A stretch of DNA of 64,000 nt from Actinotalea subterranea (GTDB lineage: Bacteria; Actinomycetota; Actinomycetes; Actinomycetales; Cellulomonadaceae): assembly GCF_008364845.1 (NCBI RefSeq), contig NZ_VTTP01000001.1, positions 457,594-521,593 of the forward strand, in the 5' to 3' direction. The notes beneath the pieces were generated by a model. It ran no database searches. It was not told where the DNA came from and saw nothing but the letters and a program-made list of their open reading frames with translations. The position numbers and the translations under genes are program-made. Each line of letters opens with the position of its first letter. Position 1 is the first letter of the stretch. Shown one piece after another: positions 14,208-31,655 of the stretch.

Positions 14208-14282
14208 GGACACCTCCGACGAGTGGGCTCACCGGTACAGCAGGGTCAGCGGCACCGCCCATGAGTCTGCCCGAGGAAGCGG

Positions 14283-14320
14283 GCAATCCGGAACAAACGG
14301 ACGCCGAGCGCACGGGTGAA
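14283..14320 (-). promoter_or_regulatory. Partial EPS regulatory element upstream of the GT4 gene
   Basis: TTCACCCG (14320-14313) and GTCCGTTTG (from 14302) occur on the gene strand, but spacing is 10 nt instead of 17-19 and there is no TANNNT box at the expected distance. It may be a degenerate copy. Confidence 0.3.
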
Positions 14321-14331
14321 ACCGTGCGAGA

Positions 14332-15525: not shown

Positions 15526-15528
15526 CGC

Positions 15529-16689: not shown

Positions 16690-16718
16690 GCGCACCTCCT
16701 GAGCGTCGCTGACCTCGG

Positions 16719-16740
16719 ATGCTAGCGGGAAGACGGACAT
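16719..16740 (-). promoter_or_regulatory. Shared EPS-type promoter, GT4-acyltransferase operon
   Basis: GTCCGTCTTC starts at 16738 and TAGCAT (16724-16719) begins exactly 14 nt later, the spacing seen at both LamG genes. No TTCACCCG box lies upstream here. Confidence 0.5.
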
Positions 16741-16818
16741 CCGGGACATGGCGGGCAGTGCCGGGCATCGCCGTCGGTACGCTGCAGCACGTCTCCCAGC
16801 CCCGACCCGGAGGTCGTC

Positions 16819-18960
16819 GTGCCGTCAGTGCCCGCAGGGTCAGCAGCGCCGGAAGGCCCCACCGAGCCGGGACCGCCCGCCGGCCCGGCGGCGCCCGCGC
16901 GCACGGCGGTGGTCGTCGTGAGCTACGGCTCCGCCGACCTGCTCGAGCGGCACCTCGCGCGCACGTCGTCGGGCACCGGGGCCACCGTGGTCGTCGTCGA
17001 CAACTTCTCGACCCACGCCGAGCGCGCCGCCGTGACCCGCGTCTGCGAGCGGCACGGCTGGCACCTCGTCGCGCGTGAGGCCAACGACGGGTTCGGGGCG
17101 GGCGTCAACGCCGGCGCCGAGCGCGCGCGTGCCCTCGGCTGCGACGTGCTCGTGCTCCTCAACCCGGACCTGGCCGCCGCGGGTGCCGTCGTGGACGCCC
17201 TGGCCGACGCGGTGCGTGAGGACCCGCGCGCGCTCGTCGCGCCGGCGATCGACCGGGAGGACGGGACGCCCTGGTCACGCGGCGGGCTCCTGGACGTGGC
17301 GACGGGGCGCACCCGCACGCGCGGCGTCGCACCCGAGCGCGCCGAGTGGCTCAGCGGCGCGTGCCTCGCGGTGCACCTGAGCCTGTGGGACGACGTCGGC
17401 GGGTTCGACGAGGACTACTTCCTCTACTGGGAGGACGTCGACCTGTCGTGGCGGGTGCGCGGCGCGGGCGGTCACCTGGTCGTCCGGACCGACCTGACCG
17501 CGACGCACAGCGTCGGCGGCACGCAGCGCACGGCCGACCCGCGCCGCAAGTCGGGCACGTACTACGCCGAGAACTGCCGCGGCAGGCTGCTGTTCGCGGC
17601 GAAGCACCTCGACCCCGCCGGCGTGCGGCGGTGGCGCGTCACCGCGCCGGGCTACGCACGCGACGTCGTCCTGCGCGGGGGCCGGCGCCAGCTGCTGCGC
17701 TCCCCCGCACCGCTCGCGGCCGTGCTGCGCGGCACGCTCGCGGGGCTGTCGGCGACACGACGGGCCCAGCGGGCGGGGCGGCCGGCATCCGGCGGCGCGG
17801 GGCGCTCCGCCACCAGGCACCTGCTGGTCGCCCACCCGTCCCCCGACGTCTACGGGTCCGACCGTCAGCTCCTCGAGACGGTCGAGGCGGCCGTCGCGGC
17901 GGGGTGGTCCGTCGAGGTCGCGCTGCCCGGGCCGGGGCCGCTCGTCCCGCTGCTGCGCGAGCGCGGGGCGCGTGTCAGGCGCGTACGGATGCCCGTGCTG
18001 CGCAAGGCACTGCTCCACCCGCGCCGGCTGCCCGGGTTCGCCGTCGACTCCGTGACCGCGACGCTGCGGCTCACGCGGCTGCTGCGCCGCGAGCGGCCGG
18101 ACGTGCTGTACGTCAACACGATCACGATCCCGACGTGGCTCGTCGCCGCGCGCCTGGCAGGGGTCCCGCGGCTGTGCCACGTGCACGAGGCGGAGGAGCA
18201 CCACCGCCTGGTCACCGCGGGCCTCCTCGCACCCTTGGCGCTCGCCGACCTCGTCGTCGCGAACAGCGCGGCCGCCCGGGACGTCGTGGCGTCGGCCCTG
18301 CCTCGCGTCGGCGGCGCGGTGCGCGTGGTCCACAACGGGGTGCCCGGGCCGGCCACGGAGCCCGCACCTGCGCAGCACGACCGGGCGGAACCGTGGCGAC
18401 TGGTCGTCGTCGGGCGGCTCTCGCCCCGCAAGGGCATCGACGTCGCGCTCGACGCGGTCGACGCACTGGTCCTCGCCGGCTACGACGTCACGCTGGACGT
18501 GTGCGGGACGGTCTTCCCGGGCTACGAGTGGTACGAGCGCGAGCTCCGCGACGCCGCCACCGGGCGACCGCGTCTGATCGGCCGCGTGCAGCTGCTCGGC
18601 TACGTCCACCCGACGTGGCCCCACCTCGCGGCCGCGGACGTGGTGCTCGTCCCGTCCCGATCGGAGCCCTTCGGCAACACCGCCGTGGAGGGGATGCTGG
18701 CGCGGCGCCCCGTGGTCGCCTCACGCGCGCAGGGCCTGGCCGAGGTCGTGCACGACGGTCGCACGGGCCTCCTCGTCGCTCCCGGTGACGCCACGGCGCT
18801 CGCGGGCGCGGTGCGGCGCCTCCTCGACGACGCGGGGCTGCGCCAGGGCCTCGCCGACGCGGCACGCACCGAGGCGCTCGCCCGGTTCTCGACCGGCCGG
18901 TACGCCGCCGACGTCGTGCGCGCGCTCGAGGAGGTCCGCGCAGGCATGGCGCGCGGCTGA
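16819..18960 (+). CDS. Bifunctional GT2-GT4 glycosyltransferase fusion
   Basis: A 713-residue cytoplasmic protein with two glycosyltransferase domains. GTG 16819 lies 5 nt after GGAGG. Residues 1-28 are Pro/Ala-rich. The GT-A domain (about 29-300) is rhamnosyltransferase-like GT2: VVVVSYGS, NPDLAAAG in place of DxD, and FLYWEDVDLSWR. The GT-B domain (about 335-713) is GT4: VVVGRLSPRKGIDVALDAV and PSRSEPFGNTAVEGMLARR, with the expected donor-site E-x7-E. The fusion would add two successive sugars. It is divergent from the GT4-acyltransferase operon and is followed by a GC-rich repeat-like stretch. Confidence 0.9.
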   Translation: MPSVPAGSAAPEGPTEPGPPAGPAAPARTAVVVVSYGSADLLERHLARTSSGTGATVVVVDNFSTHAERAAVTRVCERHGWHLVAREANDGFGAGVNAGAERARALGCDVLVLLNPDLAAAGAVVDALADAVREDPRALVAPAIDREDGTPWSRGGLLDVATGRTRTRGVAPERAEWLSGACLAVHLSLWDDVGGFDEDYFLYWEDVDLSWRVRGAGGHLVVRTDLTATHSVGGTQRTADPRRKSGTYYAENCRGRLLFAAKHLDPAGVRRWRVTAPGYARDVVLRGGRRQLLRSPAPLAAVLRGTLAGLSATRRAQRAGRPASGGAGRSATRHLLVAHPSPDVYGSDRQLLETVEAAVAAGWSVEVALPGPGPLVPLLRERGARVRRVRMPVLRKALLHPRRLPGFAVDSVTATLRLTRLLRRERPDVLYVNTITIPTWLVAARLAGVPRLCHVHEAEEHHRLVTAGLLAPLALADLVVANSAAARDVVASALPRVGGAVRVVHNGVPGPATEPAPAQHDRAEPWRLVVVGRLSPRKGIDVALDAVDALVLAGYDVTLDVCGTVFPGYEWYERELRDAATGRPRLIGRVQLLGYVHPTWPHLAAADVVLVPSRSEPFGNTAVEGMLARRPVVASRAQGLAEVVHDGRTGLLVAPGDATALAGAVRRLLDDAGLRQGLADAARTEALARFSTGRYAADVVRALEEVRAGMARG

Positions 18961-19195: not shown

Positions 19196-20269
19196 ATGCG
19201 AGCACTGGTCGCCTGGGCCGACGACACCTCGACCAACCTCGGGGTGCGTGCGCTCGCGCAGGGGACCGCCGCCCTCGTCGGGCGCACCTTCCCGGGGGCC
19301 GCCGTCGACTTCCAGAACTTCGGCAAGGGCGCGGCGCCCATGCGCGTCGGTCGCGTCCGGAGCCTGGCCCGCGAGCGCGTGACGGGGCGGGCCGGCCTGC
19401 TCGAGTGGCTGCGCGGCTACGACATGGTGCTCGACACGCGCTCGGGAGACAGCTTCGCCGACATCTACGGGCTGCGGCGGCTCGCCCGCATGACGGCCTT
19501 CGCGGAGCTCGCCACCGAGGCGGGGGTTCCCGTGGTCCTCGCCCCGCAGACCATCGGCCCGTTCTCCTCCCGCCGGGGTCGCGCGCTCGCCCGCTGGACG
19601 CTCCGGCGCGCGACGACGGTCCTGGCGCGGGACGGCGAGAGCGCGCGGTGCGCGCAGGGGCTCGGCCGGCCGGTCGACGCCCTGACCACGGACGTCGTCT
19701 TCGCCCTGCCGGTGCCCGAGGTCGAGCGGACGCGCGACGTCGTGCTCAACGTGTCGGGGCTGCTGTGGCGGCCGAGCCCGCACGTCGACGCGGCCGCGTA
19801 CCGGCGCACCGTCGAGGACCTGCTCGGTGCGCTCGCGGCCGCCGACCGGCGCGTGACGCTGCTCGCGCACGTGCTCGACTCGCCCCTGCCGGACAACGAC
19901 GTGCCCGTCGTCCGGGCGCTCGCGCAGGCCCACGAGGGTGTCGAGCTCGTGGTGCCGGCGGACCTGGCCGAGGTGCGCGAGGTGGTCGCGTCGGCCCGGG
20001 TCGTCGTCGGCTCCCGCATGCACGCGTGCCTCAACGCGCTGTCGGTCGGCACGCCCGCCGTGCCCCTGGCGTACTCGCGCAAGTTCGGCCCGCTGCTCGC
20101 GGACCTGCGCTGGGACCGCGTCGTCGACCTCCGCACCGCGCAGGACCCGGTCGGGGACGTCATGGCCCACCTCGGGAGCGACGACCTCGACGACGACGCC
20201 GCGCGGTCCCTCGAGATCGCCCGGGCGGCGCTCGCCCCCGCGGTGGCCGCACTGAGGGCGCTCGGATGA
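19196..20269 (+). CDS. Polysaccharide pyruvyl transferase family protein
   Basis: A 357-residue cytoplasmic protein with the two-lobed layout of the family. An N-terminal ADDTSTNLGVRAL segment is followed by VVLAPQTIGPFSS (about 105-118) and by VVGSRMHACLNALSVGTP (about 272-289), the conserved donor-binding RMH motif. It probably transfers pyruvate from phosphoenolpyruvate to make a ketal on an EPS sugar, which gives the polymer negative charge. Start ATG 19196 has GGGGAG 4-5 nt upstream. The stop overlaps the flippase start (ATGA), so the two are co-translated. Confidence 0.85.
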   Translation: MRALVAWADDTSTNLGVRALAQGTAALVGRTFPGAAVDFQNFGKGAAPMRVGRVRSLARERVTGRAGLLEWLRGYDMVLDTRSGDSFADIYGLRRLARMTAFAELATEAGVPVVLAPQTIGPFSSRRGRALARWTLRRATTVLARDGESARCAQGLGRPVDALTTDVVFALPVPEVERTRDVVLNVSGLLWRPSPHVDAAAYRRTVEDLLGALAAADRRVTLLAHVLDSPLPDNDVPVVRALAQAHEGVELVVPADLAEVREVVASARVVVGSRMHACLNALSVGTPAVPLAYSRKFGPLLADLRWDRVVDLRTAQDPVGDVMAHLGSDDLDDDAARSLEIARAALAPAVAALRALG

Positions 20270-21870
20270 CCACGCCGTCGTCCGTCGGACCGACGGCAGG
20301 GCCGGGCGGTGCGCCTGAGGCCGCACCGGGCGGGGCACCGGGCGGGGCGCCGGGCGATCCGACCTCGGCCCCCCTCGGCGCGCGCGCGGCACGCGGCGCG
20401 GTCGTGACGATCGGCGGCCAGGCGATCCGCATGGTCGTCCAGGTCGTGAGCGTGGTGCTGCTGGCGCGGATGCTCTCTCCGCACGACTACGGCCTGGTCG
20501 CGATGGTGCTGGCGGTGGTCGGCATCGGGGAGATCTTCCGCGACTTCGGCCTGTCGTCGGCGGCGATCCAGGCGAAGACGCTCTCCCGCGCGCAGCGCGA
20601 CAACCTGTTCTGGCTGAACTCCGGGATGGGGCTGCTGCTGTCCGTCCTCGCGTTCGCGGCGGCCGGGCCCCTGGCGACCCTCTACGGGGAGCCGGAGCTG
20701 GTGCCCGTCGCACGCGCCCTCGCCGTGACGTTCCTGCTCAGCGGCCTCGCGACGCAGTACCGCGCGGACCTGAACCGGCACCTGCGGTTCGCGCTGCTCG
20801 CGGCGGTCGACGTCGCGGCGCCGGTGGTCGGCCTCGCGGTCGCGCTCACCTTCGCGCTCCTGGACGCGGGGTACTGGGCGCTCGTGGCCCAGCAGGTGTC
20901 GGTCGCGCTGACCCTGCTCGTCGGCGCCGCGATCGCCGCGCGCTGGGTCCCGCGGCTGCCGCGGCGGGACGCCGACATGCGCGGCCTCCTGCGGTTCGGC
21001 TGGAACCTCCTGGCGACGCAGGTCATCGGCTACGCCGGCAACAACGTGGACTCCCTGGTGATCGGCCTGCGCTTCGGGGCGGGGCCGCTCGGCCTGTACA
21101 ACCGGGCGTTCCACCTCCTCATGACCCCGCTCTCCCAGCTCCGCTCGCCCACGACGACGGTGGCCCTGCCGGTGCTCTCCCGCCTGCGCGAGGAGCCGGC
21201 GCGCTTCGACGAGTTCGTGCGGCGCGGGCAGCTCGCGCTCGGCTACACGCTGGTCGTGGGGCTCGGCCTGGTCGTGGCCGGCGCCGACCCCCTGACCGAC
21301 GTGCTGCTGGGCTCGCAGTGGACCGAGGTCGCCCCGGTGATCAGACTGCTCGCGGTCGCGGGCGTGTTCCAGACGCTCGCGTACGTGGGCTACTGGGTCT
21401 ACCTGGCGTGCGGCCTGACGGACGTCCTCCTGCGCTACACGATGGTGTCCGTCGCGCTCAAGGTCGCGTGCATCGTCGTCGGCAGCCAGTGGGGCATCGT
21501 CGGCGCGGCAGCCGGGTACGCGCTCGCCCCCGCCCTGTCGTGGCCGCTCTCCCTGTGGTGGCTCTCGCGGCACACGCGGTTCCCGCTGCGGACGCTGCTC
21601 CTCGGCGCCGGCCGGGTGCTCACGCTCGTCGCGCTCGCGTCCGGCGCGGGGTGGCTCACGGCGCACCTCGTGGGCTCGGGGGTCGCCGCCCTCGACCTCC
21701 TGGTGACCGTCGGGGCAGCCGGCGTCGTGCACGTCGCGGCATGGCTCACGGTGCCCTCCGTCCGGCGGGACGTGCACGACGTCGCGCTCGTCGCACGGCT
21801 GGCCCGTCACCGGCCGACCGGGGTCACCAATGCCGCACAACGGGACACTCCGGACGAAGATCGATCGTGA
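20266..21870 (+). CDS. Lipopolysaccharide/EPS flippase (Wzx, MOP superfamily)
   Basis: A 534-residue polytopic membrane protein. A ~40-residue Gly/Pro/Ala-rich N-terminus precedes about twelve hydrophobic segments typical of the WzxC/MOP flippase family. LARMLSPHDYGLVAMVLAV (about 65-83) and RFGWNLLATQVIGYAGNNVD (about 242-261) are family-like. It would move the lipid-linked repeat unit across the membrane. ATG 20266 overlaps the TGA of the pyruvyltransferase gene. The next gene, which starts the beta-helix trio, has its own promoter region. Confidence 0.9.
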   Translation: MTTPSSVGPTAGPGGAPEAAPGGAPGGAPGDPTSAPLGARAARGAVVTIGGQAIRMVVQVVSVVLLARMLSPHDYGLVAMVLAVVGIGEIFRDFGLSSAAIQAKTLSRAQRDNLFWLNSGMGLLLSVLAFAAAGPLATLYGEPELVPVARALAVTFLLSGLATQYRADLNRHLRFALLAAVDVAAPVVGLAVALTFALLDAGYWALVAQQVSVALTLLVGAAIAARWVPRLPRRDADMRGLLRFGWNLLATQVIGYAGNNVDSLVIGLRFGAGPLGLYNRAFHLLMTPLSQLRSPTTTVALPVLSRLREEPARFDEFVRRGQLALGYTLVVGLGLVVAGADPLTDVLLGSQWTEVAPVIRLLAVAGVFQTLAYVGYWVYLACGLTDVLLRYTMVSVALKVACIVVGSQWGIVGAAAGYALAPALSWPLSLWWLSRHTRFPLRTLLLGAGRVLTLVALASGAGWLTAHLVGSGVAALDLLVTVGAAGVVHVAAWLTVPSVRRDVHDVALVARLARHRPTGVTNAAQRDTPDEDRS

Positions 21871-21939: not shown

Positions 21940-24261
21940 ATGAGGAGACCGACCCCGGCCCCGGCCGCCGCGACCGCACGGACGAGCACTCCCCGCCGCA
22001 GGCACCTGACCACGGGCAGCGCCCCCGGCCGCCCTCCGGCCCGGCACGCCGTCGCGCGTCGCAGCCGCCGCGCCGTCCCCACCCTCCCCGCGGCCCTCGC
22101 GACCGCCGCACTCGTCCTCTTCGGCATGCCGGCCGCGGCGAGCGCCACCCCCCTCGCGCACGACGCGTACCGCCCGACCGCCCCGGAGCGGGTCCTCGCG
22201 GGGACCGCGCTCGCAGCCGGTGAGGTCGTCGAGGTCGCCGTCCCGCACGCGCCCGCAGGCGCTGTCGCGGTGACCCTCCAGGTGACCGGGGCCCGCGCCG
22301 GCGGGAAGGCGTCGCTCGAGGTGTGCGAGGCCGCCGACGTCAGGTGCGAGAGCGGGACACCCGTGGCGGTGAACGCCGACGAGGCGTCCTCGCAGACCGT
22401 GCAGGTCGCCCTCGCACGCGCCGACGGCACCACCGACCCGACCGTGCGCCTGCGCGCGGACCGCGCCCTGACGGCCTTCGTCGACCTGCACGGCTTCGTC
22501 GTCGCCGAGGGCACGGCGGCCGCGCCCGGCGACGGCGTCTTCGTCGCGGGCCCCACGACGCCGGGCGCACGCGACCTCTCCCTCGCGGACCGCACCACGA
22601 CCACCGTGACCCTGCCCGACGCGCCCGACGCGGCCACGGCCGCCGTCGTCACGCTCACCGCGACGGACAGCGGCGGCTCGGGGTACGTCGCGGCGTGCCC
22701 GGCCGGCCAGGTGCTGCAGGACTGCGCCCGGACGTCCGTGCTCAACACCGTCGCGGGCCGTACGCGCCAGGCCACGGTGACGGTGCAGCTGGGCGGGGAG
22801 GCACGCGACTCCCTCACGCTGCACCATCGCGGGAGCGGCACCCTCGTCGACGTCGACGTCCAGGGCTACTACGTCGAGACGGCGTCAGCCGCCGAGGGCG
22901 GGATCCTGCGCCCGGGCGGCGACGTCGTGACCGCCCAGGTCCTCCCACCGCACGGTGCGGTGAGCGTGCGCGTCCCGTCCGTCCCGAAGGACGCGACGGC
23001 CGTCGCCCTGCGCCTGCGCGGCTCGGGAGCCTGGCGCGAGACCGCCGTGACCGTGTGCCCCGGTGCCGACACCTCCGCGTGCCAGGACGCCCCCGCGCTC
23101 GTCGCAGGCCCCGGCGGACCGGACCACAACGTGGTCTACCTGCCCGTCACTGCCGCCGACGCCACGCTGACGCTCGCGAGCTCCAGGGCGAGCGTGCGGC
23201 TCACGGTCGAGACCCTCGGGTTCGTCCGGCCCGACGGCGGCGACATCGGCACCACGCCTCCCGCCGGCGCAGGCCCGGGCGAAGGCACCCCGCAGCCCGC
23301 CCCCGGACCCACCCCGGCCCCGGCCCCCACACCCGCTCCCACGCCGGAGCCGACCCCCGCGCCCGTCCCGGAGCCGACCCCGACGCCCGCGCCGACCCCC
23401 ACACCGGCGCCCGCCCCTGCACCCGCTCCGGCTCCGGCGCCGGTGCCGGTGCCCGCGCCCTCGCCGGAGACGCCCGCACCAGCCGGCCGCCCCGGCCCGG
23501 GCAGCACGGGCGTGCCCGCGGGGACCGCGCTGACGGTCCACGAAGGCGACCTGACGATCACCGAGCCAGGCACGGTCATCGACGGCCTGGACATCCGCGG
23601 GTTCGTGCGCGTCAAGGCGCCGGACGTGACCATCCGTCGCTCGATCATCCGCGGGGCGCCCGTCACGAGCTACATGTCGCTCGTGCAGAACTCGGACCCC
23701 GCCAACCACCTGACGATCGAGGACTCCGAGCTCGTGGCGGCGCACCCGTCACCGTTCATCGACGGCATCGTCGGCAAGAACTTCACGCTGCGCCGGGTCA
23801 ACATCCACGGCGTGGTCGACCAGGTCAAGATCACCGGTGACGACGTCACGGTCGAGGACTCGTGGCTCCACGACAACCTGCACTACCTCAAGGACCCGAA
23901 CTACAACAACACACCCACGCACGACGACAACGTCCAGGTGCAGATCGGACGCCGCATCACCCTGCGCAACAACACCATGGAGGACTCGCACAACGCGGCC
24001 CTCCAGGTCACGCAGGACCGCGGCGACGTCGGCGAGCTCACCGTGGCCGGCAACTACGTGGACGGCGGCGCCTGCTCGATCAACGTGGCCGAGAAGTCGT
24101 ACGGGCCGCTGTCAGGCCTGCGGGTGACCGACAACGTCTTCGGGACGTCCCGGCGGGTGGCGGGCTGCGCCATCCTCCTGCCGAGCGGCACGGCCGCGAA
24201 GGCAACCGTCAGCGGGAACACGTTCGTCGACGGCCTCGTGGCGAACATCTCCCGCGGCTGA
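21940..24261 (+). CDS. Secreted right-handed beta-helix protein 1 with three beta-rich N-terminal units
   Basis: A 773-residue exported protein. The long N-region contains RRSRR before a hydrophobic stretch ending AAASA (about 65), possibly a Tat or extended Sec signal. Three ~120-residue beta-rich units follow (about 70-430), each with paired cysteines (EVCEAADVRC, AACPAGQVLQDC, TVCPGADTSAC) and each ending in a (L/V)xGFV-like or VQGYYV strand. A Pro/Thr/Ala linker (about 438-522) joins them to a ~250-residue beta-helix domain (522-773) with THDDNVQ and GIVGKNFTLR. The same domain ends the next two genes. It might be an EPS lyase or epimerase, or a structural matrix protein; no known catalytic triad is evident. 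I infer control by CRP from the palindrome upstream. Confidence 0.8.
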   Translation: MRRPTPAPAAATARTSTPRRRHLTTGSAPGRPPARHAVARRSRRAVPTLPAALATAALVLFGMPAAASATPLAHDAYRPTAPERVLAGTALAAGEVVEVAVPHAPAGAVAVTLQVTGARAGGKASLEVCEAADVRCESGTPVAVNADEASSQTVQVALARADGTTDPTVRLRADRALTAFVDLHGFVVAEGTAAAPGDGVFVAGPTTPGARDLSLADRTTTTVTLPDAPDAATAAVVTLTATDSGGSGYVAACPAGQVLQDCARTSVLNTVAGRTRQATVTVQLGGEARDSLTLHHRGSGTLVDVDVQGYYVETASAAEGGILRPGGDVVTAQVLPPHGAVSVRVPSVPKDATAVALRLRGSGAWRETAVTVCPGADTSACQDAPALVAGPGGPDHNVVYLPVTAADATLTLASSRASVRLTVETLGFVRPDGGDIGTTPPAGAGPGEGTPQPAPGPTPAPAPTPAPTPEPTPAPVPEPTPTPAPTPTPAPAPAPAPAPAPVPVPAPSPETPAPAGRPGPGSTGVPAGTALTVHEGDLTITEPGTVIDGLDIRGFVRVKAPDVTIRRSIIRGAPVTSYMSLVQNSDPANHLTIEDSELVAAHPSPFIDGIVGKNFTLRRVNIHGVVDQVKITGDDVTVEDSWLHDNLHYLKDPNYNNTPTHDDNVQVQIGRRITLRNNTMEDSHNAALQVTQDRGDVGELTVAGNYVDGGACSINVAEKSYGPLSGLRVTDNVFGTSRRVAGCAILLPSGTAAKATVSGNTFVDGLVANISRG

Positions 24262-24263
24262 GA

Positions 24264-24292
24264 TTCACCCGGGACTCAACCCGTTCGGGTGA
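24264..24292. promoter_or_regulatory. TTCACCCG box plus ACCCG-TT-CGGGT inverted repeat
   Basis: ATTCACCCG (24264-24272) is followed by the 12-bp near-palindrome ACCCGTTCGGGT (24279-24290). Another GAACGGGTGAAT lies at 24421-24432 and GTCCGTTTG at 24455. These repeat the boxes seen at other EPS promoters, but no -10 is appended here. The hairpin could also act as a weak terminator for the gene ending at 24261. Confidence 0.35.
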
Positions 24293-24479
24293 TCATGACT
24301 CGGCCGTTCGTGTCGGGCCGTGCGCCCCCGGCCCGAGGCCGTCGCGCGAACCGGACCGCACGCGCACAAACGCGTACGGAGCGGGTCGAACGCCGCGCCT
24401 CGGGCCGCGAGGACTACGGCGAACGGGTGAATGCCCCGGCGCTAAGCACACTTTGTCCGTTTGCGCCCGTTCCCACGAC

Positions 24480-24495
24480 TGTGACCTGAGTCACG
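24480..24495 (+). promoter_or_regulatory. Near-perfect CRP-type site
   Basis: TGTGACCTGAGTCACG matches TGTGA-N6-TCACA at nine of ten conserved positions. The centre is about 48 nt upstream of the predicted transcription start of the riboswitch-controlled gene, close to class II spacing. Confidence 0.55.
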
Positions 24496-24498
24496 TCC

Positions 24499-24529
24499 TA
24501 GACAGCGCGCGTCGGAGCGCGCCTAGTAT
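24499..24529 (+). promoter_or_regulatory. Promoter of the riboswitch-controlled beta-helix gene
   Basis: TAGACA (24499-24504, resembling TTGACA) and TAGTAT (24524-24529) are separated by 19 nt. Transcription would start near 24535, right at the 5' side of the riboswitch. Confidence 0.5.
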
Positions 24530-24533
24530 CACG

Positions 24534-24618
24534 CCGTCAGCGAGAAGAGCAAACCTGTCGCAAGGCAGGGGCGCAAAGCCATGGGACCCACGTGGTCAGC
24601 CAGGCTGCCGAACGACGG
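24534..24618 (+). ncRNA. Cyclic di-GMP-I (GEMM) riboswitch
   Basis: The conserved core is present: GCAAACC (24549-24555), a 6-bp P1b stem capped by a GCAA tetraloop, then GCGCAAAGCC (24571-24580). A second hairpin built on GGACC/GGTC follows, ending in AGCCAGGCTGCCG (24598-24610), which resembles the tetraloop-receptor arm. The closing P1 helix pairs CCGTC (24534-24538) with GACGG (24614-24618). Its 3' strand takes in the first bases of the GGAG ribosome site (24617-24620) for GTG 24628. Ligand binding normally stabilises P1, so c-di-GMP would be expected to reduce translation. The direction of control is an inference. Confidence 0.85.
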
Positions 24619-24627
24619 AGACCCCCC

Positions 24628-26319
24628 GTGCCCCACCTCACCCTGCCCTCACGCCTCCCCGCACGCGGTGCGCGAGGCGCCCTGCGCGCCGCGGTCGCTG
24701 CGGCCGTCGTGATCGGGGCGGTGACCGCCGCCGGTCCCGCGACCGCGCTCCCGGCCGGTACGCCGTCGGGGGTCGCCGCGGTCGCGCAGCCGACCCGTGT
24801 CGCGACCGCAGCGGGCGACTACGCGTCCTACGTCGTCTCCGTCTACCGCGACCTCTTCGGGCGCGAGCCCGACGCGGCAGGCCTCAACGCCTGGAGCGCG
24901 GCCCTGAACGCGGGCGCGGCGCGCGTCGGCGTCGCGAACTCGATCACGGGCAGCGACGAGTACCGCGGCGGGCTGATCACCGGCTCCTACGCCCAGTACC
25001 TCTCGCGCACGCCCGACGCCCCCGGGCTGCAGAACTGGCTGCTCCACATGAACCGCGGCCTCACGCTGCAGCAGATGGAGGGCGGCTTCCTCGCCTCCGA
25101 CGAGTACTACGTCCAGTCGGGCTCGACGCCGGCGGGCTGGGTCACCCGTCTCTACCAGCACGTCCTCGGTCGCGAGGCGGCGGGCGTGGAGATCAACCAC
25201 TGGGCGAGCCAGCTCGAGGCCGGTACGACTCGCGTGAGCGTCGCGATGGGCTTCCTGCTGTCCGCCGAGCACGTCGGCGCGGTGCTCGACGTCCAGTACC
25301 GCAAGCTCCTCGGTCGCCCGCTCGACGACGGCGGCCGCGCCGCATGGGTGTCGGCGATCCAGTCCGGCTCGCGCATCGAGGCCGTGATCGGCTCGATCGT
25401 CTCGAGCTCCGAGTACGTCACGCGCACGGGCAGCTACGTCCCGGCCACCCCGGCCCCGCCCGTCGCCGCGCCGCCCGCCCCGGCGCCCGCGCCGCCCGCG
25501 CCCGCACCGGGCGGCGGGACCGCACCCGCCCCCAGCGTCGGCGGACCCGGCGGCCTGCCCGTCGGCGTCCCCGCGGGCACCCACCTGACCGTCCACACCG
25601 GCGACCTCACGATCACGACGCCGGGCACGGTCATCGACTCGCTCGACATCCGCGGGTTCGTGCGCGTCCGCGCCGCCAACGTGACCATCCGCAACTCGAT
25701 CATCCGGGGCCGCGGCGGCCTGACGAGCTACATGTCCCTCGTGCAGAGCCCCGACGCCGGCGCCAACCTCGTCATCGAGAACTCCGAGCTCGTCGCGCTC
25801 GAGCCCTCCCCGTACATCGACGGGATCGTCGGGAAGAGCTTCACGCTGCGTGGCGTGAACATCCACGGGGTCGTCGACCAGGTGAAGATCACCGGGAATG
25901 ACGTCCTGGTCGAGAACTCCTGGCTCCACGGCAACCTGCACTACGCGCAGGACCCGAATTACGGCTACACGCCCACGCACGACGACAACGTGCAGATCCA
26001 GGTGGGCTCCAACATCACCATCCGGAACACCACGATGGCCGACGCGCACAATGCAGGCGTACAGATCACCCAGGACCGCGGAACGGTGAGCAACGTCGTC
26101 TTCAGCAGCAACCGGGCAGATGGCGGCGCGTGCACCATCAATGTCGCAGAGAAGGCTTACGGTCCGATCGGCGGGATGGTCATCTCCAACAACACGTTCG
26201 GCCTCAACACCAGGGTCGCGCGGTGCGCCATCCTCATGCCGGCGACGACGACCGCACTGTCGACGGTCGCCAGCAACATCTACGTCGACGGCGCCGTCGT
26301 CGCCGTGAAGCGCGGCTGA
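24628..26319 (+). CDS. Secreted DUF4214 / right-handed beta-helix protein 2
   Basis: A 563-residue exported protein. I chose GTG 24628, 7 nt after GGAG; an in-frame GTG at 24592 lies inside the riboswitch. The signal peptide ends near ATALP (about 41). Residues 60-275 hold repeated DUF4214-like units (VYRDLFGREPDAAGLNAW, LYQHVLGREAAGVEINHW, QYRKLLGRPLDDGGRAAW), known from S-layer and secreted bacterial proteins. A Pro/Ala linker (about 276-311) leads to the shared beta-helix domain (312-563) with THDDNVQ, GIVGKSFTLR and INVAEKAYGP. It is controlled by a c-di-GMP riboswitch and probably CRP. A surface or EPS-attached role is inferred, and no active site is recognised. Confidence 0.85.
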   Translation: MPHLTLPSRLPARGARGALRAAVAAAVVIGAVTAAGPATALPAGTPSGVAAVAQPTRVATAAGDYASYVVSVYRDLFGREPDAAGLNAWSAALNAGAARVGVANSITGSDEYRGGLITGSYAQYLSRTPDAPGLQNWLLHMNRGLTLQQMEGGFLASDEYYVQSGSTPAGWVTRLYQHVLGREAAGVEINHWASQLEAGTTRVSVAMGFLLSAEHVGAVLDVQYRKLLGRPLDDGGRAAWVSAIQSGSRIEAVIGSIVSSSEYVTRTGSYVPATPAPPVAAPPAPAPAPPAPAPGGGTAPAPSVGGPGGLPVGVPAGTHLTVHTGDLTITTPGTVIDSLDIRGFVRVRAANVTIRNSIIRGRGGLTSYMSLVQSPDAGANLVIENSELVALEPSPYIDGIVGKSFTLRGVNIHGVVDQVKITGNDVLVENSWLHGNLHYAQDPNYGYTPTHDDNVQIQVGSNITIRNTTMADAHNAGVQITQDRGTVSNVVFSSNRADGGACTINVAEKAYGPIGGMVISNNTFGLNTRVARCAILMPATTTALSTVASNIYVDGAVVAVKRG

Positions 26320-26353
26320 CCAGGCACGACCGCCCGGTCGCCCAACGCCTCTG

Positions 26354-26385
26354 AAGGCCCGACCCCGTGCGCGGGGTCGGGCCTT
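26354..26385 (+). terminator. Terminator after beta-helix gene 2
   Basis: Perfect 13-bp stem AAGGCCCGACCCC / GGGGTCGGGCCTT with a 6-nt loop, 34 nt after the stop codon. Confidence 0.8.
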
Positions 26386-26781
26386 CGGCATGCCCGGCCC
26401 ACACCTCGCCCCGTGGCACGCCATGATCGCCGACGGGCCGCCGAGGGGGCCGCACACAGCTCGGCGCACGGCCGTCGCATGATCACATCGCCGACGGAAG
26501 CGCATTCGCAAGAATGTGCTGCACATCACGCCCTTTCACGCGAGGACTAAAGTCCCACGCACAATTGCGCGCATTGTTGATCTTCATCGGGCGTCGCGCA
26601 CGCATTGTTCGCCGGGATTGCTCGATGTGTCCGGAATCCCCCTCATGGAATTTACTCCGGACGCCTGAACTTCCTCATTTCCGCGCACATCTGCCGATGG
26701 TCAGTGTGGCGGCGCGAACCCCTTTATCGGCTCACCCAGCGACGCGCCGACGAGCCCATTCCATCCATCGGGAGTCCAACC
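26386..26781. other. Long intergenic region with an AT-richer 3' part upstream of beta-helix gene 3
   Basis: No coding sequence is evident in this ~400-bp gap. From about 26,480 the composition becomes clearly richer in A/T than the surrounding DNA. It contains GGACT-AA-AGTCC (26542-26553), a TCCGG...CCGGA inverted repeat (around 26,632-26,663), CAATTGCGCGCATTG-like sequence and CCCCTTTATCGGCT. It probably holds the promoter and a long 5' leader of the next gene. I do not recognise a known riboswitch class in it. Confidence 0.4.
26515..26530 (+). promoter_or_regulatory. Weak CRP-like site
   Basis: TGTGCTGCACATCACG matches the CRP consensus at eight of ten conserved positions. It is listed because the two upstream paralogues carry stronger versions at comparable places. 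Confidence 0.3.
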
Positions 26782-29217
26782 GTGTCCCAACCACAACGCA
26801 TGTCCCGCACGTTGCGCAGGATCGCCGTCGCTGCGGCCTTCGCGACCCTCGTCGTCGGTACCGCGCAGGCCACTCCTGCGAGCGCCCGGACAGGGTCCCC
26901 GATCGGGAACCTCGAGAAGGTCACCGCAGTCTCCGGCGGCGTCCGGGTCCAGGGCTGGGCCTGGGACCCCGACACCACCGCATCCGTCGTCATGGTCGGT
27001 GTGGCGGGCTCGTCACGGACGACCGCGACCGCGTCCACCTACCGCGCGGACGTCGCCAGGTCGTTCCCGGAGTCGGGCGGCTACCGCGGCTTCGACATGG
27101 TGATCCCGGCCACGCCGGGCGCCCAGCAGGTGTGCGTGACCGCGACCGACGTCGGCGCGGGCAGCGACAAGACCTTCGCGTGCCAGACCGTCACGGTCGT
27201 CAACAGCTCTGCGCGCGGCAACCTGGACGGCGTCGCCGTCGAGGGTGAGGCCGTCAAGGTGTGGGGCTGGGCCGCCGACCCGGATGCCACCGGCCCGGTC
27301 ACCGTGCGCGTCGTCGTGGCGGGGATCACCCGTGATCTCGTCGCGAACCTCCCACGGCCCGACGTCGCCAAGGCGCTGCCCGCCTACGGCCCCAACACCG
27401 GCTTCAGCGCCGTCATCCCCGTCCCGCCGGGCACCCACGGGGTCGCCGTCACGACCCTCAACGTCGGCCCGGGCGAGGACAAGGTGTACGCGCCGCGCGT
27501 CGTGAACGTCCTCGACCACAGCCCGACCGGCGCGGTCGATCCCGCCACCGACGGCCCCCTCGGGCTGCGCGTGCGCGGCTGGGCCACCGACCTCGACGCC
27601 ACGGCACCCGTCCAGGTGCGGCTCTCCGTCACGGGCACCACGGTGACCCGCACCGTCACCGCCGACGGCACGCGCGCGGACCGCTCCGACGCCGCGGCCT
27701 TCGAGACGCTCCTGCCCCTCGGTCCCGGGGCGTACGAGGTGTGCGCCACGGCGCTGAACAGCGGCATCGGCCGCGACACCGCGCTCGGCTGCACCTCCGG
27801 CGCCGTCCTCGACCACGCGCCGCAGGGCGCCCTCGACCCGGCCGCTGACGACGCGGGCGGCCTCCGCGTGTCCGGCTGGGCGACGGACGTCGACGCCAGC
27901 ACCCCGCTCGAGGTGCGCCTGACCGTCACGGGGACGACCACGACCCAGACGGTCCGCGCGGACCGCGTGCGCTCCGACCGCCCCGGCTCGACCGGCTTCT
28001 CGACCGTGCTGCCCCTGGGCCTCGGCCTCCACGAGGTGTGTGCGACCGCCGTCAACGTGGGCGTCGGCGCCGACACGAGCCTCGGGTGCACCTCGGGCAC
28101 CGTGCTCGACCACAAGCCGCTCGGCAACCTCGAGGACGCCACGCCCGTCGAGGGCGGCGTGAAGGTGTCGGGCTGGGCCGCAGACCCGGACACCGCGGGT
28201 GCGCTGACGGTGCGCGTGACGGTCGCCGGTGCGACGCACGACATCGCAGCGAGCACTCCTCGGGCCGGCGCGGGCACCGCCCCCGTCGCCGGGGCGCAGA
28301 TGGCCTTCAGCGCCGTCGTCCCGGCCGCTCCTGGCACGCACACCGTGTCCGCGGTCGTCGTCAACGTGGGACCGGGCGCCGACCAGGCGCTGACCCCCCG
28401 GACGGTCACCGTGGCCCCGCCCGCGCCGACCACCCCGGACGTCCCCGGCCCCACCAACACGGGCGTCCCCGCGGGTACGGCCCTCCGGGTGCACAACGGC
28501 GACCTCACCATCACGACGCCGGGCACCGTCATCGACGGTCTGGACATCCGCGGGTTCGTGCGGGTCAAGGCGAACGACGTGACGATCCGCAACACGATCG
28601 TCCGCGGACGCCCCGGCCTCACGGGCTACATGTCGCTCATCCAGAACGCCGACCAGGCGAACCACCTGACGATCGAGGACTCGGAGCTCGTCGCCGCCGA
28701 CCCGTCGTTCTACATCGACGGGATCGTCGGGAAGAACTTCACGCTGCGCCGGGTCAACATCCACGGTGTGATCGACCAGGTCAAGATCACCGGGAACGAC
28801 GTCCTCGTCGAGGACTCGTGGCTGCACGACAGCCTGTACTACCTCCAGGACCCCAACTACAACTACACGCCGACCCATGACGACAACGTGCAGATCCAGC
28901 GGGGCACCAACATCACCATCCGGAACAACACGATGGAGGACGCGCACAACGCAGGTGTCCAGATCACCCAGGACTCCGGCGTCGTCGGGAACGTGAGGTT
29001 CGAGGGCAACCGGGCCGACGGCGGGGCGTGCACGATCAACGTCGCCGAGAAGTCCTACGGCCCGATCAGCGGGACGGTCATCACCGACAACGTGTTCGGC
29101 ACCGGCACGCGCATCGCGCGGTGCGCGGTCCTCATGCCGAGCACGACGACGGCGCTCTCGAACGTCACCAACAACGTCTACACCGACGGTGTGGCCGTGA
29201 CGGTCAAGCGGGGCTGA
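26782..29217 (+). CDS. Secreted GWAxDPD-repeat / right-handed beta-helix protein 3
   Basis: An 811-residue exported protein. GTG 26782 follows GGAG by 7 nt; ATG 26800 is a possible alternative. The signal peptide ends near PASA (about 36). Five ~100-residue repeats follow (starting near residues 38, 143, 246, 345 and 443), each opening with xxGxL(D/E) and containing (V/R)xGWAxDxD. Such repeats are common as accessory modules of actinobacterial secreted proteins. A short Pro/Thr linker leads to the shared beta-helix domain (558-811) with GIVGKNFTLR, THDDNVQ and INVAEKSYGP. No riboswitch is visible upstream, unlike gene 2. Function is unknown; the shared domain is the probable active or binding part. 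Confidence 0.85.
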   Translation: MSQPQRMSRTLRRIAVAAAFATLVVGTAQATPASARTGSPIGNLEKVTAVSGGVRVQGWAWDPDTTASVVMVGVAGSSRTTATASTYRADVARSFPESGGYRGFDMVIPATPGAQQVCVTATDVGAGSDKTFACQTVTVVNSSARGNLDGVAVEGEAVKVWGWAADPDATGPVTVRVVVAGITRDLVANLPRPDVAKALPAYGPNTGFSAVIPVPPGTHGVAVTTLNVGPGEDKVYAPRVVNVLDHSPTGAVDPATDGPLGLRVRGWATDLDATAPVQVRLSVTGTTVTRTVTADGTRADRSDAAAFETLLPLGPGAYEVCATALNSGIGRDTALGCTSGAVLDHAPQGALDPAADDAGGLRVSGWATDVDASTPLEVRLTVTGTTTTQTVRADRVRSDRPGSTGFSTVLPLGLGLHEVCATAVNVGVGADTSLGCTSGTVLDHKPLGNLEDATPVEGGVKVSGWAADPDTAGALTVRVTVAGATHDIAASTPRAGAGTAPVAGAQMAFSAVVPAAPGTHTVSAVVVNVGPGADQALTPRTVTVAPPAPTTPDVPGPTNTGVPAGTALRVHNGDLTITTPGTVIDGLDIRGFVRVKANDVTIRNTIVRGRPGLTGYMSLIQNADQANHLTIEDSELVAADPSFYIDGIVGKNFTLRRVNIHGVIDQVKITGNDVLVEDSWLHDSLYYLQDPNYNYTPTHDDNVQIQRGTNITIRNNTMEDAHNAGVQITQDSGVVGNVRFEGNRADGGACTINVAEKSYGPISGTVITDNVFGTGTRIARCAVLMPSTTTALSNVTNNVYTDGVAVTVKRG

Positions 29218-29301: not shown

Positions 29302-30828
29302 TCAGTACGCGCCCGAGCCGGAGAGCACCGCGCGCGCGGTCTTCCACAGGATCATGAGGTCCATCGCGACGGACCAGTTGTCGACGTAGCGCAGGTCGAG
29401 ACGGACGGACTCGTCCCAGCTCAGGTCCGAGCGGCCCGAGACCTGCCAGAGCCCGGTGAGCCCGGGCTTGACGCGCAGGCGACGGTGGACCGCGTCCTCG
29501 TACCCCTCGACCTCGGCCGCGAGCGGCGGCCGGGGGCCGACGAGCGACATGTCACCCTTCACGACGTTCACGAGCTGGGCGAGCTCGTCGAGCGAGAAGC
29601 GACGCAGGAGGCGCCCGACGGGCGTGACACGGGGGTCCTGCCGCATCTTGAACAGCACCCCGGCGCCCTCGTTGCTCGCGGCCAGGTCCGACCGGCGCTG
29701 ATCGGCGTCCACGTACATGCTGCGCAGCTTCCACATGGTGAAGGTCGAGCCGTCGACGCCGACCCGCGTCTGCCGGTAGAACGCCGGCCCGGGCGACGTG
29801 AGCCGCACCGCCAGCGCGGCGACGCCGATCACGGGCGCGGCCGCGACGAGCAGGGCGAGCCCGACGGTCCGGTCCATGACGGCCTTCGCGAGCAGCCGCC
29901 GCCGGGTCGCACCCACCTCGACCTCGAGCAGCGACAGGCCCGCCGTCGGCTTGACGGTCAGCCGGGGCGCGGTGACCTCGAGGATGTCCGGGACCACGAT
30001 GAGCTTCGCGCCGGCGCGGTCCAGCGCCCACGACAGCCGCCGCAGCGCCTCGCCGTTCAGCGTGCTGCCGGAGACGACCACGACGTCGATCGCCCGGTCG
30101 GCGACGACCTGCGCGACGTCGGCGACCGCCCCGACGACGGGCACGCCTGCGACGGGCCGCGCGTCGGTGAGGCTCGGTACGCACACGCCGGTGACCTGGT
30201 AGCCGTGGTACGGGGCGCCGGCGAGGTCGGCCACGACGCGCGCCGCAGCGTCGGCCTGGCCCACGATGAGCGTCCGCATCATCGCCTCGCCGTGGCTCCG
30301 CTGGTGGTGCAGCACCCGCCGGTGGAAGTAGCGCGCGATCACGGCGATCGCGACCGCCGCGGGCACGCCCCCGAACACGAGCAGCCGCGAGATCTCGGCC
30401 TTCGTGAGGTAGCTCGCCGTCATGAGCGCGACGACCGCCCACGCCCCCGACCGCAGGAGGGCCTGGAACTCGGCCGGCCCGTCCCCGAGCTCGCCCGCCT
30501 CGTAGCCCCGGGCGAGCGCCACGAGGACCACGAAGCCGACGACGCCCCCGGCGACGACGGCCGCGAGGAGCGGCCCCGGGCCGTAGATCGGGAGCCCGAT
30601 GAGAAGCGTGGCGGCCAGGGCGGCGAAGCCGTCGAGGACCACGACACGCGCCCGGTAGGCGGCGGCGCGGTGCGACCACAGGTGCTCACGCGCGCTCGCG
30701 TCGTTGAAGGGCGTCAGGCGCTGCACGAAGGGCTGCGAGGAGGCCCAGGACCGGCGCACCTCGGCGGCGGCACCACGACGGTCTGCCGGGCTCGACCACC
30801 GGAGGTCTCGTTCTGCTGCGATCGTCAC
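29302..30828 (-). CDS. Polyprenyl glycosylphosphotransferase (WbaP/CpsE-like EPS priming enzyme)
   Basis: A 508-residue membrane protein that should start EPS repeat synthesis by moving a sugar-1-phosphate to undecaprenyl phosphate. About four hydrophobic segments lie in residues 60-165. A Rossmann-like CoA-binding-type domain follows (about 180-290), then a membrane re-entry segment (about 312-335) and the catalytic bacterial sugar transferase domain (about 305-508). Hallmarks are SPGPAFYRQTRVGVDG, FTMWKLRSM, RRFSLDELAQLVNV, MSLVGPRPP and RLRVKPGLTGLWQVSGRS. The GTG start (30828) has GGGGGTG about 8 nt upstream. It is the only gene on its strand between two terminators, apart from the housekeeping block. 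Confidence 0.9.
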   Translation of the reverse strand: MTIAAERDLRWSSPADRRGAAAEVRRSWASSQPFVQRLTPFNDASAREHLWSHRAAAYRARVVVLDGFAALAATLLIGLPIYGPGPLLAAVVAGGVVGFVVLVALARGYEAGELGDGPAEFQALLRSGAWAVVALMTASYLTKAEISRLLVFGGVPAAVAIAVIARYFHRRVLHHQRSHGEAMMRTLIVGQADAAARVVADLAGAPYHGYQVTGVCVPSLTDARPVAGVPVVGAVADVAQVVADRAIDVVVVSGSTLNGEALRRLSWALDRAGAKLIVVPDILEVTAPRLTVKPTAGLSLLEVEVGATRRRLLAKAVMDRTVGLALLVAAAPVIGVAALAVRLTSPGPAFYRQTRVGVDGSTFTMWKLRSMYVDADQRRSDLAASNEGAGVLFKMRQDPRVTPVGRLLRRFSLDELAQLVNVVKGDMSLVGPRPPLAAEVEGYEDAVHRRLRVKPGLTGLWQVSGRSDLSWDESVRLDLRYVDNWSVAMDLMILWKTARAVLSGSGAY

Positions 30829-30958
30829 GCGTCGTTCACCCCCAGGTCACCAGCCGCTTGTCTGGGTTGAGGGTATACCGACCGGTCTGGGCGTTACGTC
30901 CTTTCTGTCCGATTTCACCCGCATGCGCGACAGGGTGGACGCCTGGGGCGCGCGGGGC

Positions 30959-31558: not shown

Positions 31559-31655
31559 CTCATCCCCTCCCAGGGTTCGACGTGCCCGGAGACGAGCGAC
31601 GCCTGGTCCCAGGAGGACCAGGCGTCGCAGCGTTCGCACGGATGACCGGCCGAGC

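What the first reader, a model, noticed from the sequence alone, without database searches (positions are those of the whole stretch)
21940..29217. Three consecutive mosaic genes: one shared beta-helix domain, three unrelated N-terminal modules
Three adjacent same-strand genes end in the same ~250-residue domain (GIVGK.FTLR, THDDNVQ, GGAC.INVAEK.YGP), joined by a Pro/Thr/Ala linker to a different module each time: cysteine-containing beta units, DUF4214 repeats, or five GWAxDPD repeats. They sit between the Wzx flippase and the priming transferase of an EPS cluster. The invariant HDDN and NVAEK segments look like a conserved surface of a helix-fold carbohydrate enzyme or binder. This could be an undescribed EPS-modifying or EPS-anchoring family with swappable targeting modules.
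Basis: partly seen in the sequence, partly recalled or inferred. Interest (0 to 1): 0.8.

Follow-up and report, generated by a model that had tools for sequence, protein, structure and literature searches.

The report
Swappable-head sugar-coat proteins, one shared tail
Soil actinobacteria carry, inside their sugar-coat gene clusters, sets of secreted proteins with unrelated front halves and one shared rear domain whose copies are often kept alike within a strain and carry an enzyme-like set of fixed residues, so the domain probably acts on the strain's own coat polysaccharide.

Summary
In detail: three adjacent proteins (window 21940-29217) end in the same 250-251-residue right-handed beta-helix (67-76% identical), with unrelated N-modules, between Wzx and the genome's only priming sugar transferase. 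The design recurs: 86 of 221 family genomes match (69 at E 1e-20 or better), often with several copies. In 66 of 87 loci examined (63 by a stricter count) a Wzx, WbaP or Wzz gene lies in the fetched stretch, against 0 of 20 arbitrary stretches. Heads include DUF4214, PKD, CWB2, SLH, phytase; some copies stand alone or look like lipoproteins. Two new facts. (1) In 17 of 43 de-replicated multi-copy loci every domain's nearest relative is a locus-mate, in 12 of these with a different head; one pair about 11 kb apart is 99% identical in DNA from the domain's first codon to just past the stop. In 26 of 43 this is not so. Best reading: an EPS-acting, probably catalytic domain, tuned to the strain's own EPS and placed by exchangeable heads. 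A pure EPS-binding anchor is the main rival. No Pfam or NCBIfam enzyme family matches; the reaction is unknown.

The parts
21940..24261 (+). gene 1: protein with a signal peptide by eye, three Cys-containing beta units (module class cl0) + Pro/Ala linker + C-terminal beta-helix domain
   Evidence: start at the ATG is inference (ORF opens at GTG 21919)
22165..23238 (+). N-module of gene 1 (cl0): tandem beta-sandwich-like units; the commonest partner class of the domain (49 of 151 distinct domain ORFs)
   Evidence: low-confidence model pLDDT 70; no Pfam match
23509..24258 (+). C-terminal beta-helix domain, copy 1
24592..26319 (+). gene 2: protein with a signal peptide by eye, DUF4214 repeats + Pro-rich linker + C-terminal beta-helix domain
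24823..25425 (+). DUF4214 repeats of gene 2
   Evidence: 4 stretches, E 5e-35
25564..26316 (+). C-terminal beta-helix domain, copy 2
26800..29217 (+). gene 3: protein with a signal peptide by eye, five GWAxDPD-type repeats + linker + C-terminal beta-helix domain (ORF opens at TTG 26605; ATG 26800 precedes the signal peptide, inference)
26905..28420 (+). five GWAxDPD-type repeats of gene 3
   Evidence: internal repeats 42-44% identical
28462..29214 (+). C-terminal beta-helix domain, copy 3 (numbering reference: R97 at 28750, D105 28774, H122 28825, H139 28876, D141 28882, Q144 28891; C190-C221 a likely disulfide)
19405..21870 (+). Wzx-type flippase (Polysacc_synt_3 PF13440, E 3.5e-73, matching from residue 352 of this ORF, so the real start is probably further in)
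29302..30828 (-). priming sugar transferase (Bac_transf PF02397, WbaP/CpsE type), the only PF02397 match in the genome
8686..10671 (+). Wzz/tyrosine-kinase-like chain-length regulator
12999..18960 (.). EPS glycosyltransferases and acyltransferase (GT4 12999-14213 -, Acyl_transf_3 14332-15525 -, GT4 15529-16749 -, GT2-GT4 16819-18960 +)

Best explanation
The shared C-terminal domain is a beta-helix module that acts on the strain's own Wzx/Wzy-made exopolysaccharide, most likely as an enzyme (lyase-, epimerase- or hydrolase-like chemistry at a site built from R97, D105, H122, H139, D141 and Q144 along one edge of the helix). Each protein is secreted by its signal peptide; the N-module holds or aims the domain (DUF4214, SLH, CWB2 or a lipobox at the cell envelope; PKD, F5/8C or malectin modules perhaps towards other surfaces). 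Because the proteins of one locus face the same EPS, their domains are often kept alike by gene conversion or module swapping, while the N-modules stay different. Shown: the domain, a confident fold model, EPS-locus context, module diversity, within-locus homogenisation in part of the loci, invariant residues. Inferred: secretion, catalysis, EPS as substrate, that the six residues meet in space, and the reason for homogenisation.
For: EPS context in 66 of 87 loci against 0 of 20 control stretches; 63 of 87 when hits overlapping the domain ORF or weaker than 1e-12 are dropped, 57 of 87 within 5 kb; it reaches distant relatives (19 of 25 low-scoring loci, 16 strictly). Six polar residues kept in 80-83 of 83 domains that differ down to about 26% identity, H139 in 83 of 83, while neighbouring positions (106, 108, 140, 142, 146, 170, 171) vary. 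DSSP places D105 and D141 each two residues before strands 107-109 and 143-145, as on neighbouring coils. Many fold and profile neighbours act on polysaccharides: Foldseek AlgE6 E 7e-4, alginate lyase 6kfn; profile endopolygalacturonase 1k5c E 4e-5, AlgE4 E 2e-4. Copies with little besides signal peptide and domain exist (e.g. L119 332 aa, L120 329 aa, L121 326 aa, stop to stop), which suits an enzyme. Homogenisation: in 17 of 43 de-replicated multi-copy loci every domain is nearest to a locus-mate; L013 copies with DUF4214 and GWAxDPD heads 90% alike; L094 99.1% over 764 bp, 98% at third codon positions, genes about 11 kb apart. Domain distance tracks Wzx distance beyond Pth (partial r 0.49, p 0.0005, 24 loci) and beyond the N-module of the same gene (partial r 0.35, p 0.004, 19 loci; 0.31, p 0.009, 16 de-replicated loci).
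Against: The constellation matches no active site I compared: AlgE's Y149-D152-H154-D178 and GH28's NTD/DD/GHG/RIK are not reproduced. No distances were measured (no coordinates available). 21 of 87 loci lack Wzx, WbaP and Wzz in the stretch. 26 of 43 de-replicated loci are not fully homogenised; without de-replication only 42 of 113 genes have a locus-mate as nearest domain; and a group (L100-L102, L106-L109) keeps two domain subfamilies 40-48% alike side by side. WbaP distance follows the N-module (partial 0.35) rather than the domain (0.10, not significant), Pth likewise more the N-module (0.33 against 0.22). The r 0.85 for Wzx is mostly one five-locus clade; without it 0.41. In L094 and one L013 copy the unlike head is little more than a Pro-rich or Ser/Pro-rich linker. 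Several near-identical copies per locus is unusual for a simple enzyme. The best profile hit, PfbA, is an adhesin.
Confidence: 0.5

Rival explanations
1. The domain is a non-catalytic EPS-binding anchor: it hooks diverse secreted heads (adhesins, wall binders, a phytase) onto the strain's EPS, or hooks the EPS onto the cell wall through DUF4214, SLH or CWB2, as VPS-binding RbmA works with the Vibrio EPS.
For: Constant C-terminal place, diverse N-modules including a phytase and wall-binding modules, several copies per locus each with its own head, C-termini of the three window proteins without a hydrophobic tail or sortase-like motif by eye, homogenisation inside a locus. In this genome DUF4214 otherwise sits on an amidase, a SpoIID-like protein and a metallopeptidase, which fits a cell-wall module.
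Against: Invariant His/Asp/Arg/Gln residues although the EPS machinery (as judged by Wzx) differs between strains; copies with little besides the domain.
Confidence: 0.33
2. Homogenisation is a by-product: the domains are recent tandem duplicates or convert simply because they are long, close, similar repeats; no EPS-specific selection. (This bears on the reason for homogenisation and can be true beside either function.)
For: Gene conversion needs only proximity and similarity; most homogenised copies are neighbours. Codon use at the domain edge shows no special recombination site. 26 of 43 loci are not homogenised.
Against: Several N-modules are shared with other genomes and so look older than the domain pairs. 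L094's copies are about 11 kb apart on opposite strands with EPS genes between. In 13 of 13 same-module locus pairs the domain is more alike than the homologous N-modules, though the domain also seems to evolve more slowly in general.
Confidence: 0.35
3. The domain is a membrane-proximal biosynthesis helper (assembly or ligation factor) that is exported, not acting on the finished EPS.
For: Tight link to Wzx and WbaP; forms with a lipobox-like motif by eye (L020, L127, L137, L140).
Against: Long Pro-rich linkers and adhesin-like heads, several copies with different heads; some loci lack EPS genes.
Confidence: 0.1

Closest known systems
AlgE1-7 secreted mannuronan C5-epimerases of Azotobacter (A-modules + R-modules)
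   Same: Secreted modular proteins with a right-handed beta-helix catalytic module; six of the seven A. vinelandii genes clustered; A- and R-modules in varying numbers (passages of PMC4444821); top fold match.
   Different: The A-module is followed by Ca-binding R-modules; catalytic residues Y149, H154, D152, D178 (passages of PMC8824271) are not reproduced; 16% identity, TM 0.51.
GH28 polygalacturonases
   Same: Beta-helix; the profile aligns D105 with the NTD Asp and D140-D141 with the Asp pair of 1k5c.
   Different: Positions 140, 162 and 197 vary (D 45, H 24, K 31 of 83); H139 and H122 are kept instead; Pfam does not call GH28. The GH28 motif names are recalled.
PfbA of Streptococcus pneumoniae
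   Same: Surface protein with a beta-helix core; best profile hit (E 1e-5).
   Different: Cell-wall-attached binder of host fibronectin, plasmin and plasminogen (start of abstract of PMC3718772), not known here as an EPS-locus protein.
EPS-binding matrix proteins (Vibrio RbmA/RbmC/Bap1, Pseudomonas CdrA)
   Same: Secreted proteins that work with the strain's own EPS; RbmA binds VPS (start of abstract of PMC5605196).
   Different: Other folds and no family sharing one locus-wise homogenised domain, by recall; seen only as a search listing with abstract starts.
GimA/GimB and the imp cluster of Actinoplanes missouriensis
   Same: Actinobacterial enzymes acting on a polysaccharide of a putative Wzx/Wzy cluster adjacent to gimB (passages of PMC12691653).
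   Different: Glycoside hydrolases that release spores; the word helix does not occur in the text.

Membership tests
AlgE mannuronan C5-epimerases | Catalytic Y149-D152-H154-D178 arrangement | tested here: not met
   Family-wide residues are R97, D105, H122, H139, D141, Q144; the DPH run (recalled as part of the AlgE motif) is absent in the window domains. By sequence only; no structural superposition was read
AlgE mannuronan C5-epimerases | Ca-binding R-modules after the A-module | tested here: not met
   No RTX-type Pfam match in the three proteins; the domain ends each protein
AlgE mannuronan C5-epimerases | Right-handed parallel beta-helix catalytic module | tested here: met
   Model pLDDT 94.9; best Foldseek hit AlgE6 E 7e-4, TM 0.51
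AlgE mannuronan C5-epimerases | C5-epimerase activity on a uronan | not testable with these tools
   needs purified EPS
GH28 polygalacturonases | Three catalytic Asp (NTD, DD), GHG His, RIK Lys (recalled) | tested here: not met
   D105 80/83 and D141 81/83 kept, but D140 45, H162 24, K197 31 of 83
Pfam Beta_helix PF13229 (generic) | Score over the gathering cut-off 25.9 | tested here: inconclusive
   g3 26.1 bits passes; g1 21.9 and g2 19.5 do not
Characterised polysaccharide lyase and epimerase families in Pfam or NCBIfam | A significant family match of the shared domain | tested here: not met
   At E up to 1 only Beta_helix and weak sub-cut-off hits (NosD, PBS_linker, LIC-type and others); over cut-off only PF13229 in g3 and DUF4214 in g2
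Wall-anchor modules SLH and CWB2 | Sequence match of the shared domain | tested here: not met
   SLH (1 of 71) and CWB2 (2 of 71) occur as other modules of relatives; the window proteins have neither

The most novel reading that the evidence does not exclude
A class of EPS-cognate module that I found no description of: a single beta-helix domain that recognises and chemically works on the strain's own exopolysaccharide, kept in step across its host proteins in a locus by gene conversion, so that any head (adhesin, wall binder, enzyme) can be placed on the coat by acquiring the local copy of the domain. It would be a plug-in system for decorating Gram-positive EPS.
Probability: 0.4. Interest if true: 0.8.

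Novelty: new variant of a known kind. Interest (0 to 1): 0.62.

Why it matters
How actinobacteria hold, remodel and decorate Wzx/Wzy exopolysaccharide is, to my knowledge, little worked out. This family gives a concrete handle: one domain with a match in 86 of 221 genomes of the family searched (69 of them at E 1e-20 or better), a candidate active site of six residues, domains that often match within a strain, and a list of heads. If it is an enzyme it is a candidate for a new polysaccharide-active family whose specificity follows the EPS locus; if it is a binder it is a tag for putting proteins on bacterial EPS.

Tried and rejected
Match to known enzymes: Pfam, NCBIfam and PHROGs gave no characterised family for the shared domain. 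PDB phmmer gave nothing better than E 0.07; a 12-sequence profile gave 1k5c at E 0.05; the 83-sequence profile gave PfbA, 1k5c, AlgE4 and an alpha-galactosidase at 1e-5 to 4e-4, which beta-helix periodicity alone may explain.

GH28 membership was attractive from the alignment (D105 with NTD, D140-D141 with DD) but fell with positions 140, 162 and 197 varying. AlgE membership fell with the motif and the module plan.

A site-specific recombination site at the domain's first codons (shufflon-like exchange) was considered because homology begins exactly at GVPAG in several pairs; synonymous codons there are no more conserved than elsewhere, so ordinary conversion limited by homology is enough.

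The strong correlation with Wzx (r 0.85) proved to be driven by five loci and fell to 0.41 (partial 0.35) without them. WbaP and Pth follow the N-module better than the domain; GT4_DUF1972 follows both.

The EPS count was rechecked: 3 of the 66 loci (L119, L124, L138) rest on weak hits or one that overlaps the domain ORF.

The model of g1's N-module is weak (pLDDT 70, four rows) and its Foldseek hits (TM about 0.2) say no more than beta-sandwich-like.

Literature: I found no paper on this family in the eight searches run (searches returned no paper). Listings and abstract starts only, except passages of PMC8824271, PMC12691653 and PMC4444821.

Full report
What is there. Three consecutive + strand genes, 21940-24261, 24592-26319 and about 26800-29217, encode proteins of about 773, 575 and 805 aa with a signal peptide by eye, whose last 250-251 residues are 67-76% identical while the N-terminal parts have no significant similarity to each other. 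The N-parts are three Cys-containing beta units (gene 1), four DUF4214 stretches (gene 2; PF13946, E 5e-35) and five GWAxDPD-type repeats (gene 3; three exact). Upstream lie a Wzz/kinase-like protein, GT4s, an acyltransferase, a GT2-GT4 protein and the Wzx-type flippase; downstream, on the other strand, the priming transferase, the only PF02397 match in the genome. The domain is found three times in the genome, only here.

Fold. With 12 related sequences AlphaFold2 gives a confident right-handed beta-helix (pLDDT 94.9, pTM 0.92). Foldseek against the PDB lists alginate epimerases and lyases first (AlgE6 E 6.8e-4, TM 0.51, 16% identity; 2 hits at E 0.001 or better), then among others a polygalacturonase, PfbA, tailspikes and PL6 lyases: a fold-level match, not a family assignment. 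Pfam offers only the generic Beta_helix model for the domain.

Spread. A profile of 12 domains finds a match at E 0.001 in 86 of 221 genomes of the same family (8 of 25 genera); 17 of the 86 are weaker than 1e-20 and may be other beta-helices, which leaves 69. In the phylum sample 7 of 396 genomes match, the own genome included, 3 of them weakly. Named carriers (nine loci) are Actinotalea, Cryobacterium, Naasia and Allorhizocola. I fetched 80 stretches of up to 20 kb around hits that I picked from the listings and joined them with the nine named loci and the window: 151 distinct domain ORFs, 147 with at least 180 domain residues.

EPS context. After removing two duplicate places and one overlapping stretch, 66 of 87 loci have a homologue (phmmer 1e-8) of the window's WbaP, Wzx or Wzz in the fetched stretch: 42 of 57 high-scoring, 5 of 5 middle and 19 of 25 low-scoring loci. 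Of 20 arbitrary stretches from genomes of the same set 0 do, and 1 has a GT2/GT4 hit. Dropping hits weaker than 1e-12 or overlapping the domain ORF leaves 63 of 87 (42, 5, 16), and 57 of 87 within 5 kb (42, 5, 10). The stretches are up to 20.7 kb, the window 64 kb. The 21 loci without are named; five belong to one genus (g6), of which four genomes also have a copy beside Wzx and Wzz, and some are short contigs. The link is strong but not exclusive.

Modules. BLAST single-linkage sorts the N-parts into 46 clusters; gene 1's class has 49 members, a class partly of PKD-containing proteins 20, gene 2's DUF4214 class 6 and gene 3's class 5; many of the single-member clusters are short heads or distant sequences. 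Of 71 proteins scanned with Pfam, 6 hit DUF4214, 4 PKD, 2 CWB2, and 1 each SLH, phytase, F5/8C, malectin, REJ and DUF4082; 35 hit Beta_helix. Copies with little besides signal peptide and domain (L119, L120, L121, L080, L090) and forms with a lipobox-like motif by eye (L020, L127, L137, L140) exist. In the window's own genome DUF4214 also sits on an amidase, a SpoIID-like protein and a metallopeptidase, which suggests, but does not prove, a wall-directed module.

Conserved site. On 83 domains, chosen from the 147 at under 72% identity to each other (window copies excepted; domains under about 196 residues left out), H139 is kept in 83, R97, D141 and Q144 in 81, D105 and H122 in 80; D140 in 45, N142 in 39, H162 in 24, E196 in 39, K197 in 31. 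C190 and C221 are both present in 59, both absent in 24 and never single, which suggests a disulfide. DSSP of the model puts D105 and D141 at matching places two residues before strands 107-109 and 143-145, so they probably stack on neighbouring coils; real distances could not be measured. An invariant polar core with variable neighbours is what an enzyme with changing substrates would show.

Homogenisation. In L013 three copies (a DUF4214 head, a GWAxDPD head and one that is mainly a Ser/Pro linker) are 90-94% identical in the domain (92-94% at third codon positions) while the best outside domains are 59-62%; a fourth copy is 68-69% alike. In L094 two copies, one with DUF4214 and one whose head is a short segment and a Pro-rich linker, about 11 kb apart on opposite strands, match over 764 bp at 99.1%, from the first codon of the domain to 5 bases past the stop. 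In L092 (DUF4214 and cl0 heads) 84% against 58% outside. Over all 53 multi-copy loci, 42 of 113 genes have a locus-mate as nearest domain, and 21 of 73 have an other-module mate closer than the best same-module gene elsewhere. When close lineages (domains 85% or more alike) are left out of the comparison, 44 of 93 and 22 of 53, and in 17 of 43 loci every gene is nearest to a mate, the window included; in 12 of these 17 at least one mate has a different head class, the other 5 are same-class pairs (classes; L133 and L134 are neighbouring stretches of one genome counted as two). The remaining 26 of 43 are not homogenised in this sense, and L100-L102 and L106-L109 keep two old subfamilies side by side. 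The quick domain tree (one support value) shows the same mixture.

Co-variation. Domain distance follows Wzx distance beyond Pth (partial 0.49, p 0.0005, 24 loci), and WbaP, GT4 and GT2/GT4 distances more weakly (partial 0.24, 0.33, 0.22). With the N-module of the same gene as control, in 24 loci with a class cl0 gene and a Wzx, r is 0.85 (0.81) and the N-module adds nothing; without one five-locus clade r is 0.41, partial 0.35 (p 0.004, 19 loci), and 0.31 after de-replication (p 0.009, 16 loci), the N-module given the domain 0.08-0.13 and not significant. WbaP and Pth distances go the other way, GT4 follows both. This is moderate support for a tie between domain and EPS type; physical linkage and the more saturated N-module distances limit it.

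Reading. EPS locus, fixed rear domain, free heads, frequent locus-wise homogenisation and an enzyme-like invariant core fit best with a domain that acts on the strain's own EPS. I favour catalysis (0.5) over pure binding (0.33) because the six residues do not change while the EPS machinery does, and because copies with little besides the domain exist; the diverse cargo, including a phytase, and the several near-identical copies per locus favour binding. The nearest analogue is the clustered, modular AlgE family, but membership fails on the motif and on the module plan.

Limits. N-module clusters are single-linkage; neighbour calls used the window's own proteins as queries, so divergent genes may be missed; loci were picked from truncated listings and are not a random sample; signal peptides, lipoboxes and C-termini were judged by eye; nothing here measures activity.

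Noticed in passing
window 3384-7577 (-): A 1397-aa protein with a LamG and two PKD stretches near the EPS cluster; phmmer relatives stand directly beside the beta-helix gene in Cryobacterium loci L014-L017.
   Followed up: partly
window 29302-31639 and 43 of 90 loci (duplicates included): The EPS locus sits near peptidyl-tRNA hydrolase (and in the window an L25-like ribosomal gene by eye) in many genomes: a conserved chromosomal place for a variable EPS cassette.
   Followed up: partly
L094 3427-4842 (-) and 15827-17686 (+): Two genes with unlike heads (one mostly linker), about 11 kb apart on opposite strands, share a 764-bp 99.1% identical stretch that begins exactly at the domain's first codon.
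   Followed up: yes
L119 10234-12558 (-): A phytase fused to the beta-helix domain, beside a copy with little besides the domain, 95-97% alike in the domain.
   Followed up: partly
G000 contigs C21 and C7 (L002, L005, L006): DUF4214 repeats are C-terminal on a metallopeptidase, a SpoIID-like protein and an amidase in this genome, a hint that DUF4214 is a cell-wall-directed module.
   Followed up: partly
L065, L073, L077, L084, L103: One genus of the family (g6) carries domain genes (pairs in L065, L073, L077) in places without Wzx, WbaP or Wzz; four of these five genomes also have a copy beside Wzx and Wzz (L074, L078, L085, L104).
   Followed up: no
domain positions 190 and 221: Two cysteines present together in 59 and absent together in 24 of 83 domains, never singly: a likely disulfide.
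   Followed up: yes
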